From Planctomycetota bacterium (GTDB lineage: Bacteria > Planctomycetota > Planctomycetia > Gemmatales > Gemmataceae): a DNA stretch of 54,764 bases. Position 1 is the stretch's first letter. Every line of letters begins with the position of its first letter. The notes below the pieces were generated by a model. It had not been told where the DNA came from. It was given only the letters and a program-made list of their open reading frames with translations, and made no database searches. The position numbers were made by a program, and so were the translations under genes. Location of the stretch: positions 1-54,764 of the forward strand of contig VGYC01000023.1 of NCBI GenBank assembly GCA_016873095.1, read 5' to 3'. This document shows positions 4,706-10,126 of this stretch, piece after piece.

Positions 4706-6184
4706 TCACGCCAGCAGTGCCGGCACCACGATTCCCGCCACGTCGGTGAGCCGGAAGTCGCGGCCCTGGTAGCGGTAGGTGAGGCGCAGGTGGTCGAGGC
4801 CGAAGAGGTGCAGGAGGGTGGCGTGGAAGTCGTTGATGTGCACCGGGTCGCGGGCGATGCCCCAGCCGATGTCGTCGGTCTGGCCGTGGATGTGTCCGCC
4901 CTTCACGCCGCCGCCGGCCATCCAGATGGTGAAGGCAAAGGGATGATGGTCCCGGCCGGTGGCGTTGGGGTTGCCGCCGCGGTTCTCACCCAGCGGCGTG
5001 CGGCCGAACTCCGATAGCCACAACACCAGCGTCGAATGCAGCAGGCCGCGACGCTTCAGATCCTTGAGCAACGCCGCCACCGGCTGGTCGGCCATCATCG
5101 AGTTGTGTGCCAGCTCGGCGTTGAGGTTGCTGTGATGGTCCCACGAGGCGTGATAGATGTTGACGAAGCGGACACCACGCTCGACCAGCCGGCGCGCGAG
5201 CAGGCAGTTGAGCGCGAATTGCCGGAACTGTCCCGGTCCGCCGCCGCGATGGGCAGCGATGGCGGGCTCGCTTCGGTCGATGCCGTAGTCGTCGAGAGTC
5301 CGCCGTGTCTCGCCGCTGACGTCGATCAGTTCCGGCGCGGCCGATTGCATCCGAAACGCCAGCTCGTAGGAAGCGATGCGGCTGGCGATCTCCGGGTCGT
5401 TGACATGGCGGTGGCGCAGGGCATTTAGCCGGCTGATCGCCTCGATGGTGCTGCGCTGCATCTCCCCCGTGAGACCGGGCGGGTTATTGAGATTGAGGAC
5501 CGGCTCTCCCTGGTTGCGAAAGAGCACGCCGGCGTAGGTGGTCGGCAGAAAGCCGCTCGACCAGTTGGACGTGCCGCCGCTGGTGCCGCGGCCGGCCGTG
5601 AGGACGACGTAGCCTGGCAAATTTCGCGATTCGCTCCCCAGGCCGTAGTTGAGCCACGAACCCATGCTTGGCCGGCCGAACGTCGGCACGCCGGTGTTCA
5701 TGAACAGTTGCCCGGGATGATGATTGAACGACTCGGTGTGCATGGAGCGAATCCAGCAGATGTCGTCCGCACACGTGGCCAGGTGCGGCAGGAAATCGGA
5801 CAGGTCCATGCCGCACTGGCCGTGCTTCGCGAAGCGGCGTGGGCTGCCGAGCAGCCGCGCCGTCGCCCGCTGGATGAAGGCGAAGCGAACGTTGCCGGTC
5901 ATTGACTCCGGCAGCGGCTGGCCATGCAGCTGATTGAGTCGCGGTTTTGGATCAAAAAGGTCGATCTGGCTCGGCGCGCCTTCCAGATAGATGCAGATAC
6001 AGGCGCGTGCCTTCGGCGCGAAGTGTGGCGGCCGCGGCGCCAGCGGGTTCGCCGAATCACGCTCCTGGGCAAGCAGGCCGTCCTGCTGCAGCAGCGAGGC
6101 CAGCGCCAGCCCGCCAATACCGCTGGCGGCGGAGGTGAGAAAGTGGCGACGGCTCGACAGAATCTGTTGCGCTAGCGGATGCAC
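4706..6184 (-). CDS. DUF1501 family protein with Tat signal
   Basis: 492 residues starting with GTG at 6184, nine bases after a GGAGG; the frame is open further upstream but this start places the twin-arginine signal SRRHFLTSAASG near residue 11. The mature part has the DUF1501 marks ACICIYLEGAPSQIDLFDPKP, HTESFNHHPGQL, a GSW block and ASWDHHSNL, and LSEFGRTP...RDHHPFAFTIWMAGGG. DUF1501 proteins belong to the alkaline-phosphatase/sulfatase-like fold and are abundant in Planctomycetes, usually exported; their substrate is unknown. It is transcribed divergently from a second DUF1501 gene 203 bases away whose N-terminus is built the same way (GTG, His, then Tat motif). Confidence 0.9.
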   Translation of the reverse strand: MHPLAQQILSSRRHFLTSAASGIGGLALASLLQQDGLLAQERDSANPLAPRPPHFAPKARACICIYLEGAPSQIDLFDPKPRLNQLHGQPLPESMTGNVRFAFIQRATARLLGSPRRFAKHGQCGMDLSDFLPHLATCADDICWIRSMHTESFNHHPGQLFMNTGVPTFGRPSMGSWLNYGLGSESRNLPGYVVLTAGRGTSGGTSNWSSGFLPTTYAGVLFRNQGEPVLNLNNPPGLTGEMQRSTIEAISRLNALRHRHVNDPEIASRIASYELAFRMQSAAPELIDVSGETRRTLDDYGIDRSEPAIAAHRGGGPGQFRQFALNCLLARRLVERGVRFVNIYHASWDHHSNLNAELAHNSMMADQPVAALLKDLKRRGLLHSTLVLWLSEFGRTPLGENRGGNPNATGRDHHPFAFTIWMAGGGVKGGHIHGQTDDIGWGIARDPVHINDFHATLLHLFGLDHLRLTYRYQGRDFRLTDVAGIVVPALLA

Positions 6185-6333
6185 GGGTTCACTCCTCCAA
6201 GAGATTATAGCAATAGTCGCCAGAGCCGGGTGAACCTCGCGTGACCATGGTGCCGGGTGAACATAGAGCCGCGCACGAACCGGGTGGCCAGCAGTATCCC
6301 TCGCGGAATCGTCTTCCATTACGTTTTCGTTGC

Positions 6334-6362
6334 TTTCATCATTCGAGCCAATCGGCTATACT
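6334..6362 (+). promoter_or_regulatory. candidate sigma70-type promoter for the + strand DUF1501 gene
   Basis: A TTTCAT (6334-6339) and a TATACT (6357-6362) are separated by 17 bases. The -10 is five of six to consensus, the -35 weak. The start would fall about 20 bases before the GTG at 6388, leaving just room for the GGAGG at 6375-6379. The intergenic region also holds two direct copies of GCCGGGTGAAC (6225-6235 and 6252-6262) and an inverted GTTCAC near 6187, which could be an operator. Confidence 0.4.
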
Positions 6363-6387
6363 TTCCATTATCCTGGAGGACCAAGCC

Positions 6388-7854
6388 GTGCACTCCTCGC
6401 AGCCGCTTACCCATCCGCGTATTTCCCGGCGAACCGCAATCCAGGCAGGAGCCGTCGGCATTCTTGGCCTGGGCATGAACCACCTGCGCGATCTACGCGC
6501 GGCGCAACCGGCGGGCGCTCGGGCCAGCGGCACGGCGCGATCATGCATTTACATTTTCTTGTCAGGCGGGCTGGCACAGCATGAGAGCTTCGACCTGAAG
6601 CCAAACGCCCCCGAAGGCATCCGCGGCGAGTTCCGGCCCATCAGGACGGCAACTCCCGGCATCGAGATCTGCGAGCATCTGCCAGGACTGGCGCGGCGCA
6701 GCCGGCACTGGGCCATCGTGCGTTCGCTGACGCATCCGACCAACGGCCACACCGATGGCCATTATTTCATGCTCACCGGCCGCAGCGTGGTGTCGCCTGG
6801 CTATCGCGGCGACCGCGAACCACGGCCGAGCGACTGGCCCGCCATCGCTTCCATCGTCGGCGATGCCGTGCCGCGACGCAGCAACAACCTGCCGCCCGCC
6901 ATCGTCCTGCCCGAACGGCTGGTCCACTGGTCCGGCGGCGTCATTCCCGGCGCCTATGCCGGGCAGATGGGCCGGCAGCGCGATCCGCTGTTCGTCGAGG
7001 CGTCGCCCTACGGCGACCCGATGTGGCGCGGCGCGTATCCGGAATACACATTTCCCAACAGCACCAAGGCGCCGCCGCGCCATCCGGATGCGCGCATCTT
7101 CCAGGCGCCCACCATCACGCTGGCGCCGGGGCTGAGCTTTGATCGCCTGCACAACCGGCTCGACCTGCTGCGCAACCTCGACGGCCAGCGGCAAGCGCTG
7201 GAGCGCTCGGCGACGATGCAGGGCTACGACGGCAATCGCCAGTCGGCCGTTTCGCTGCTCGCGGATTCGCGCGTCCGCCGCGCTCTCGACGTGACCAACG
7301 CCGATCTGCGAATCCAGGAACGCTATGGCCGCAACAGCTTCGGCTGGTCGTTGCTGATGGCGTTTCGCCTCGTGGAAGCGGGCGTCAACATGATCCAGGT
7401 CAACCTCGGCAACAACGAGACCTGGGACACGCACGGCGAGATCTTTCACCGGATGAAGGACAAGCTGCTGCCACCGACCGATCGCGCGCTGTGCGCCCTG
7501 ATCGACGACTTGCATTCGAATGGATTGCTGGACAGCACGCTGATCGTGATGGGCAGCGAGTTTGGCCGGACGCCGCGGCTGTCGACGCTGGCTGATTCGT
7601 ACAGCGGTCCTGGCCGGGATCACTGGGGCGCGGTGCAGAGTGTCTTCTTCGCCGGCGGCGGCATCCGCGGCGGCACGGTCATCGGCTCTTCGGACCGCTT
7701 CGGCGGCCACCCGGCCAGCAGCCCGCAGACCCCGGAAACCATGGCCGCCACCATCTACCACGCTCTCGGTATCCCCGCCACCGCCATGTGGCACGACGCC
7801 GTCGATCGGCCGCATCATATCTACCACGGGCAGCCGATTGCGGGGCTGGTGTAG
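6388..7854 (+). CDS. DUF1501 family protein with Tat signal
   Basis: 488 residues. I chose the GTG at 6388, eight bases after GGAGG, which puts the Tat motif SRRTAIQAGAVGILG at about residue 11. DUF1501 marks follow: SCIYIFLSGGLAQHESFDLKP, SLTHPTNGHTDGHY, ETWDTHGE and MGSEFGRTP...GPGRDHWGAVQSVFFAGGG. The fold is that of alkaline-phosphatase-like proteins; the protein is expected outside the cytoplasm and has no known substrate. In planctomycetes DUF1501 genes usually sit next to DUF1549/DUF1553 cytochrome-like genes; none is present here. Instead this gene is paired head to head with another DUF1501 gene. Confidence 0.9.
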   Translation: MHSSQPLTHPRISRRTAIQAGAVGILGLGMNHLRDLRAAQPAGARASGTARSCIYIFLSGGLAQHESFDLKPNAPEGIRGEFRPIRTATPGIEICEHLPGLARRSRHWAIVRSLTHPTNGHTDGHYFMLTGRSVVSPGYRGDREPRPSDWPAIASIVGDAVPRRSNNLPPAIVLPERLVHWSGGVIPGAYAGQMGRQRDPLFVEASPYGDPMWRGAYPEYTFPNSTKAPPRHPDARIFQAPTITLAPGLSFDRLHNRLDLLRNLDGQRQALERSATMQGYDGNRQSAVSLLADSRVRRALDVTNADLRIQERYGRNSFGWSLLMAFRLVEAGVNMIQVNLGNNETWDTHGEIFHRMKDKLLPPTDRALCALIDDLHSNGLLDSTLIVMGSEFGRTPRLSTLADSYSGPGRDHWGAVQSVFFAGGGIRGGTVIGSSDRFGGHPASSPQTPETMAATIYHALGIPATAMWHDAVDRPHHIYHGQPIAGLV

Positions 7855-9082: not shown

Positions 9083-10126
9083 ATGACCCGACTGATCCTG
9101 ATCCTGACCGGTCTCGCTCTTCTGCCGAGTGCCGGCTGGGCGCAGCCGACTTCGCCGCTGGAGAAGTACCGGAAACTGCGATTTCCTGCCAGGGACGAGA
9201 ACTTCGCGAAAGGCTGGCAAGAGCGCGTCGCGCTGGAGTACGAGATCATCAATGCCGCCGATCTCAGGGCGCTGCGGAACGCGCTCAAGGACGCGGACCC
9301 CTTCGTGCGCGCGATGGCCGCCCGTGCGCTTGGAATTCGGGGAGACAGGGACTCGGCCGATACGCTCGCGGAACTGGTCAGTGGCGACAAGGAGTATTCG
9401 GTCCGCCTGCGGGCGGTCGAGTCGCTGGGGTATCTGAGGATGAAGCCCGAGGCCATCCAGCGGGCGATCAAGGACCGCAACCCCGGCGTGAGCTGGGTGG
9501 CCAAGCTGGCCGCCGATCAGCTCAAGAGCGAGACGGACCACGCCAGGCAACTCCGCGAGGCCTATGCGACGCCCATCAAGCGCGAGGCCATGGGGACCGC
9601 CAAGGTCGGCCAGCCTGCGCCGGACTTCACCGCACTCACGTGCGATGGCAAGCCCTTCAAGCTGTCCACGGTCCTCGGGAAGAAGCCCATTGCCATCTAC
9701 TTCGCGGCCTACGACGGCTGAGGCGGGTGAATGCACCAGCAGGCGCAGTTGCGCCTCAAGAAGGACGAGGTCGAGAAGCTGGGAGCAGACGTGTATGTGG
9801 TGCTGGCGATGGACCTCCACCGGACGCGAGTGTTCAAGGAGGAAAATCGGTTGCTGTCCACGTTCAAGGGGCCGTTCTCCAGGGAGAAGAGCCTGGTATA
9901 CGCGACGGCCTTGTCGGACCCGGCCGGGTACGCATCGGCGCTCTACGGGGTTGCCCGGAAGTGTCTGCGCTGGGGCGCCTGGGTCGAGAATCAACCGCAC
10001 TGGATTGTCATCGATCGCAAGGGGACCATCACGTTCATGCTCGAACCCAGGTTCGATACGCCGACCGCGTACGAAAAGGACGTGGACCAGGTGCTGGAGG
10101 CGCTGAAGAAGGCGGCTCTTCGCTGA
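9083..10126 (+). CDS. exported HEAT-repeat/redoxin selenoprotein, SelL-like, with UGGU active site (two in-frame TGA)
   Basis: Read as one 347-residue protein with TGA at 9719-9721 and 9728-9730 decoded as Sec213 and Sec216. The frame before and after is the same (648 bases from ATG 9083 to 9731). Parts: signal peptide 1-20; HEAT-like helical repeats about 60-148 (DPFVRAMAARALG, YSVRLRAVESLG); redoxin domain from about 175 (VGQPAPDF, KPIAIYFAAYDG), then U-G-G-U where peroxiredoxin/thioredoxin-like proteins have CxxC. The rest of the fold follows: QLRLKKDEVEKLGADVYVV, HWIVIDRKGTITF. The SelL branch of Prx-like proteins carries a UxxU diselenide motif. ATG follows a GGGAG nine bases upstream. 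No base change is needed to join the halves. The alternative is two adjacent nonsense mutations. Sec machinery is not in this window. Confidence 0.72.
9741..9756 (+). promoter_or_regulatory. candidate bacterial SECIS hairpin
   Basis: AGGCGC (9741-9746) and GCGCCT (9751-9756) form a perfect 6-bp stem closing the loop AGTT, with G at loop position 2 (base 9748). Bacterial SECIS elements are short stem-loops inside the coding region with a small apical loop carrying a G near its start, about 16-37 bases after the UGA. Here the loop G is 17 bases after the second TGA and 26 after the first, so one hairpin could serve both. A competing 7-bp pairing, TGAGGCG (9719-9725) with CGCCTCA (9752-9758), would bury the first TGA. 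Confidence 0.5.

What the first reader, a model, noticed from the sequence alone, without database searches (positions are those of the whole stretch)
9083..10126. Candidate bacterial selenoprotein with a UGGU (double selenocysteine) redox centre
Two TGA codons nine bases apart interrupt an otherwise continuous frame exactly where redoxins carry CxxC. The frame before and after is the same, both sides are clearly one peroxiredoxin-like domain, and no base change is needed to join them. UxxU is known in the SelL branch of Prx-like proteins, where the two selenocysteines form a diselenide. Ordinary annotation would report two broken genes or a short HEAT protein. In a planctomycete this would be a striking selenoprotein, and the arrangement with an N-terminal HEAT part is not one I know.
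Basis: partly seen in the sequence, partly recalled or inferred. Interest (0 to 1): 0.92.

Follow-up and report, generated by a model that had tools for sequence, protein, structure and literature searches.

The report
HEAT-redoxin with two selenocysteines
This planctomycete gene very probably encodes an exported redox protein with two selenocysteines in its active site (U-G-G-U), joined to a HEAT-repeat domain; relatives in other planctomycetes keep the same in-frame stop codons, so it is a working selenoprotein of a known chemical type in an arrangement I did not find described.

Summary
Frame 9083-10123 is open except for two TGA codons (9719-9721, 9728-9730) giving U-G-G-U at the CxxC/TxxC site of an AhpC-TSA (PF00578) domain, behind a signal-peptide-like N-terminus and HEAT repeats.

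It is not a pseudogene or a sequencing error. Orthologues (64-68% identity) in two other genera also carry both TGAs (UGGU). Three more carry UGGC, and a distant planctomycete relative carries UPSU. The region after the TGAs is under purifying selection at least as strong as the region before. A hairpin that fits the published bacterial SECIS model lies 25 nt after the first TGA and 16 nt after the second. It is conserved and covaries across 11 relatives.

The window's genome has selA, selB and selD. tRNA-Sec was not found in this 548-contig assembly, but all five searched genomes with an orthologue have it.

Prx-like UxxC/UxxU selenoproteins are already catalogued in bacteria. The HEAT fusion, the planctomycete family and one hairpin serving two close UGAs are the new parts. 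The family is far below the curated SelL-related cut-off, so 'SelL branch' is a resemblance only. Most likely function (inferred): an exported thiol/diselenide oxidoreductase with HEAT repeats as docking surface.

The parts
9083..10126 (+). Whole gene: HEAT-redoxin double selenoprotein, 347 aa plus TGA stop
   Evidence: full-length orthologues
9083..9142 (+). Signal-peptide-like N-terminus (MTRLILILTGLALLPSAGWA)
   Evidence: Read from the sequence; similar hydrophobic starts in L003, L005 and L046. No signal-peptide program was run.
9215..9532 (+). HEAT-repeat region (about residues 45-150, helical in the model)
   Evidence: Pfam HEAT_2/HEAT; AlphaFold2 helices, block pLDDT 81-98
9596..10123 (+). 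AhpC-TSA (Prx-like, thioredoxin-fold) domain
   Evidence: Pfam PF00578, E 3.3e-16; VIA-align Z 21.3 to Bcp1 3drn
9719..9721 (+). TGA codon 1 = Sec213
   Evidence: TGA in all 13 Sec-form sequences examined
9728..9730 (+). TGA codon 2 = Sec216; TGA in L046, L047 and L075, TGC in L003, L004 and L005
9741..9756 (+). Predicted bSECIS hairpin AGGCGC-AGTT-GCGCCT; loop starts 25 nt after UGA1 and 16 nt after UGA2
   Evidence: model rules from PMC13188914

Best explanation
The gene encodes an exported selenoprotein. UGA 9719 and UGA 9728 are both decoded as selenocysteine by the SelA/SelB/SelD pathway, directed by one in-frame hairpin at 9741-9756. The product has a HEAT-repeat domain and a Prx-like thioredoxin-fold domain whose U-G-G-U sits at the N-terminus of the active-site helix. 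It most likely works as a thiol/diselenide oxidoreductase: Sec213 attacks, Sec216 resolves, and the pair cycles between diselenide and reduced forms, with the HEAT repeats binding a partner or client. Shown by computation: the frame, conservation, selection, hairpin covariation, Sec machinery genes and fold. Inferred: actual Sec insertion, export, diselenide formation, oxidoreductase rather than peroxidase chemistry, and the HEAT role. The confidence given is for a functional double selenoprotein; for the oxidoreductase mechanism it is about 0.6.
For: Two other genera have both TGAs (L046, L047; 68% and 64% identity) and three MAGs have UGGC. A distant planctomycete relative has UPSU. Two-Sec and one-Sec forms alternate by TGA/TGC: L047 UGGU and L003 UGGC are sisters with support 100/99. 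Against orthologues, dN/dS is about 0.1-0.23 after the TGAs and about 0.2-0.5 before. selA 571 bits, selB 381 and selD 287, all over their cut-offs. tRNA-Sec (anticodon TCA) is present in 5 of 5 searched genomes with a close orthologue. The hairpin pairs in 90.9% of cells, with 9 double-change cells; 0 of 500 shuffles reach either the pairing or the covariation score, and slid partners collapse. It meets the published bSECIS rules, which 2.6% of background coding positions match at this energy; the Cys homologue L074 lacks it. The hairpin's Leu codon is TTG in all 11 sequences, though TTG is 10% of Leu codons in the window. AlphaFold2 pLDDT 85.6, with UGGU starting helix 214-225 after strand 203-208.
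Against: tRNA-Sec was not found in this MAG by five searches. The assembly is 95.5% complete in 548 contigs, and the covariance-model searches scored only 150 of over 1000 candidates, so absence is weak evidence. Hairpin energy alone is only moderately unusual for the protein sequence (window 8% of synonymous shuffles; L075 0.2%). There is no expression or peptide evidence.
Confidence: 0.92

Rival explanations
1. Pseudogene or sequencing error: the TGAs are nonsense mutations or miscalls in a former CxxC gene.
For: Metagenome assembly; tRNA-Sec not found in it.
Against: The same TGAs occur in independent genomes, selection after them is strong, there is no frameshift or TAA/TAG, and both fall exactly on the redox positions.
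Confidence: 0.03
2. Two separate proteins: translation ends at UGA1 or UGA2 and restarts at the ATG at 9731 (TGAATG), giving a HEAT protein and a short redoxin piece.
For: ATG follows TGA2 directly, and ordinary ORF calling gives 9731-10126, 131 aa.
Against: The AhpC-TSA domain starts about 40 residues before UGA1, so restart gives an incomplete fold. UGGC and UPVC relatives have no UGA at the second site. TGA/TGC alternation at one position is not explained.
Confidence: 0.03
3. Double-Sec protein, but a true peroxidase (Prx/PrxQ type) with Sec216 at the peroxidatic position.
For: Best folds are Bcp/AhpE peroxiredoxins; U216 aligns with the peroxidatic position of Bcp1.
Against: The PxxxTxxC signature is absent (A for P, U for T). 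The NRPATF Arg of most UPxC relatives is Q, H, Y or D in this branch. Sec213 is the invariant one, as the first Cys is in CxxC oxidoreductases.
Confidence: 0.25

Closest known systems
Prx-like thiol:disulfide oxidoreductase selenoproteins (PF00578, UxxC/UxxU), as listed in PMC9312934 and PMC13188914
   Same: PF00578 domain, UxxC/UxxU motif, one or two Sec, bacterial SECIS
   Different: HEAT repeats and signal-peptide-like start fused in front; neither review mentions HEAT or planctomycetes
SelL / SelL-related redox proteins (NCBIfam NF040769)
   Same: Prx-like fold with UxxU; weak partial match to the first half of the model
   Different: 20 bits against a cut-off of 120; HEAT fusion. The diselenide in SelL is from general knowledge.
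Prx-like 2 family of the GOS survey (PMC2398784)
   Same: Bacterial Prx-like sequences with UxxC and a few UxxU
   Different: That family matches pfam04592 weakly; this one matches PF00578 well. Its sequences were not compared directly.
PrxQ/Bcp and AhpE peroxiredoxins
   Same: Same fold, Z about 19-21
   Different: Lacks PxxxTxxC and the Arg of most UPxC relatives

Membership tests
Bacterial selenoprotein (any) | In-frame UGA at a position that is Cys/Sec in homologues | tested here: met
Bacterial selenoprotein (any) | Hairpin fitting the bSECIS model (loop 3-9 nt, G in first two loop positions, 16-37 nt from UGA, MFE at or below -7.5) | tested here: met
   (25 and 16 nt, loop AGTT, -10.0); rules; covariation
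Bacterial selenoprotein (any) | selA, selB, selD in the genome | tested here: met
Bacterial selenoprotein (any) | tRNA-Sec in the genome | tested here: inconclusive
   Not found in this fragmented MAG; present in 5 of 5 searched genomes with a close orthologue
Bacterial selenoprotein (any) | Sec shown in the protein | not testable with these tools
   Needs mass spectrometry or 75Se labelling
Prx-like thiol:disulfide oxidoreductase selenoprotein (PF00578, UxxC/UxxU) | PF00578 domain over the Pfam cut-off with UxxC or UxxU | tested here: met
   59.8 bits against 26; UGGU
SelL-related (NF040769) | Score over curated cut-off (120 bits) | tested here: not met
   20 bits; 17-46 bits in the six relatives tested
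SelL | Diselenide bond between the two Sec | not testable with these tools
   Needs protein chemistry
Peroxiredoxin | PxxxT/SxxC signature and catalytic Arg | tested here: not met
   Alignments
Peroxiredoxin | Prx-type thioredoxin fold | tested here: met

The most novel reading that the evidence does not exclude
A planctomycete family of exported HEAT-scaffolded diselenide oxidoreductases, not covered by any NCBIfam model I hit. One SECIS hairpin decodes two UGAs nine bases apart, and the second active-site residue toggles between Sec and Cys in evolution while the first stays Sec, so the HEAT part may direct the diselenide centre to a specific envelope client.
Probability: 0.45. Interest if true: 0.6.

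Novelty: new variant of a known kind. Interest (0 to 1): 0.5.

Why it matters
Double-Sec UxxU centres in bacteria are catalogued, but their function is unclear. Here the second Sec alternates with Cys between close relatives by one base (TGA/TGC) while the first Sec and the hairpin stay fixed. That is a natural experiment on what the second Sec adds, and on how one SECIS serves two UGAs. Standard ORF calling splits the gene, so the family is probably missed in databases.

Tried and rejected
tRNA-Sec in the window's genome: Rfam RF01852 hits were Leu/Ser and other tRNAs; two anticodon/T-arm patterns, a T-arm/acceptor pattern with 3 mismatches and a covariance model from five relatives found none. 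A gap with TTCAA in the C111 tRNA array (L034 1814-1897) looked tempting but scores in no Rfam family and reads, by eye, better as a degenerate Leu tRNA. Operon context: of the flanking genes only DUF1501 recurs, next to L046 and L073, and I consider that family too common in planctomycetes to infer function. Rfam shows no credible RNA family over the hairpin. No paper was found holding three of the terms HEAT repeat, selenocysteine, redoxin and Planctomycetes. Recoding of UGA to a residue other than Sec was rejected: relatives have Cys at these sites and the gene itself ends in TGA.

Full report
OBSERVATION. Window 9083-10126 (+) is a single frame with no stops except TGA at 9719, TGA at 9728 and the terminal TGA at 10124. 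Read with TGA as a residue it gives 347 aa: a hydrophobic signal-like start, a HEAT region (HEAT_2 E 1.4e-12) and an AhpC-TSA domain (E 3.3e-16, residues 175-318) that spans both TGAs. In a six-frame scan of the whole window no other UxxU is flanked by at least 60 open codons on each side.

RELATIVES. tblastn and whole-genome searches gave five close orthologues (64-68% identity): L046 (G042) and L047 (G069) with UGGU, and L003, L004 and L005 with UGGC. More distant HEAT-redoxins, found in the same family and across the phylum, read UPIC (L048), UPVC (L049, L072, L073, L076, L077), UPSU (L075) and CPVC (L074), and three have lost the motif (L078, L079, L080). All 13 Sec-form sequences have TGA at the first position; the second is TGA or TGC. 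In the tree, L047 (UGGU) and L003 (UGGC) are sisters with support 100/99, and L004 and L005 (both UGGC) with 97/98. The window and L046 (both UGGU) are left unresolved beside these pairs, so the second position has probably changed at least twice.

SELECTION. Between the window and its orthologues, dN/dS is about 0.1-0.23 after the second TGA and about 0.2-0.5 before the first, where dS is not saturated. A decayed gene would not show this.

SEC MACHINERY. The window's genome (8.36 Mb, 548 contigs, 95.5% complete) has adjacent selB and selA on contig C81 and a selD on C117, all over the curated cut-offs. No tRNA-Sec was found by RF01852, by patterns or by a model from relatives. The five searched genomes that hold a close orthologue each have one tRNA-Sec with anticodon TCA by ARAGORN, 65-73 bits.

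HAIRPIN. AGGCGC-AGTT-GCGCCT (9741-9756) starts its loop 25 nt after UGA1 and 16 nt after UGA2. The published bacterial model asks for a loop of 3-9 nt, a stem of 4-16 bp, G in the first two loop positions, 16-37 nt from UGA, and MFE at or below -7.5 (PMC13188914); all are met for both UGAs. In 11 aligned sequences the hairpin sits at the same place. 90.9% of cells pair, with A-U to U-A and G-C to C-G double changes; no shuffle of 500 reaches the pairing or covariation score, and slid versions pair 17-57%. Two further relatives (L076, L077) have a different hairpin, 30 nt away, that fits the rules; L073 has a shorter, interrupted stem; the Cys form L074 and the motif-less L079 and L080 have none of comparable strength, while L078 has an unrelated GC hairpin. 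Synonymous shuffling shows the energy alone is moderately unusual (window 8%, L075 0.2%), so covariation and position carry the argument.

FOLD AND CHEMISTRY. AlphaFold2 on the eight-row alignment gives pLDDT 85.6. The redoxin domain matches Bcp1 (Z 21.3, rmsd 1.8 over 149 residues) and AhpE. U213 falls on the Thr of the peroxiredoxin TxxC and on the first Cys of CGPC; U216 falls on the peroxidatic position and on the second Cys. The peroxiredoxin signature PxxxTxxC is missing, and the Arg seen as NRPATF in most UPxC relatives is Q, H, Y or D in this branch. I therefore favour thiol/diselenide oxidoreductase over peroxidase chemistry, as inference.

COMPARISON. Reviews already list 'Prx-like thiol:disulfide oxidoreductase, PF00578, UxxC/UxxU' (PMC9312934; PMC13188914), and the GOS survey reported UxxU in a Prx-like 2 family (PMC2398784). 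Planctomycete selenoproteins have been reported in two seaweed-associated genomes (PMC4807772). None of the passages read mentions HEAT. All NCBIfam matches of this protein and of six relatives lie far below their cut-offs, SelL-related included. Filed as a new variant of a known kind.

LIMITS. No protein data. The HEAT role, export and diselenide are inferred. The phylum survey covered 392 genomes drawn from a larger set and scored few candidates per genome, so the family is probably wider than seen here.

Noticed in passing
L034 600-2850 (G000 contig C111): Dense array of about 20 tRNA genes, some odd (one with a four-base anticodon call), resembling the degenerate tRNA clusters reported in planctomycetes (PMC4807772).
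   Followed up: partly
L031 3846-8123 (G000 contig C117): selD lies in a long frame behind what looks like an NAD/FAD dehydrogenase part, like the Ndh-SelD fusions of the GOS survey; Cys form (CGGC). Not tested by a domain search.
   Followed up: partly
L075 1501-2433: A second kind of two-Sec HEAT-redoxin, UPSU, in a distant planctomycete family (G384), with its own matching hairpin.
   Followed up: yes
L078, L079, L080: HEAT-redoxin relatives in one family (f33) that have lost the CxxC/UxxC pair.
   Followed up: partly
window 4706-6319 (-) and 6241-7854 (+): Two divergent DUF1501 genes whose listed ORFs overlap at their starts, near the finding.
   Followed up: no
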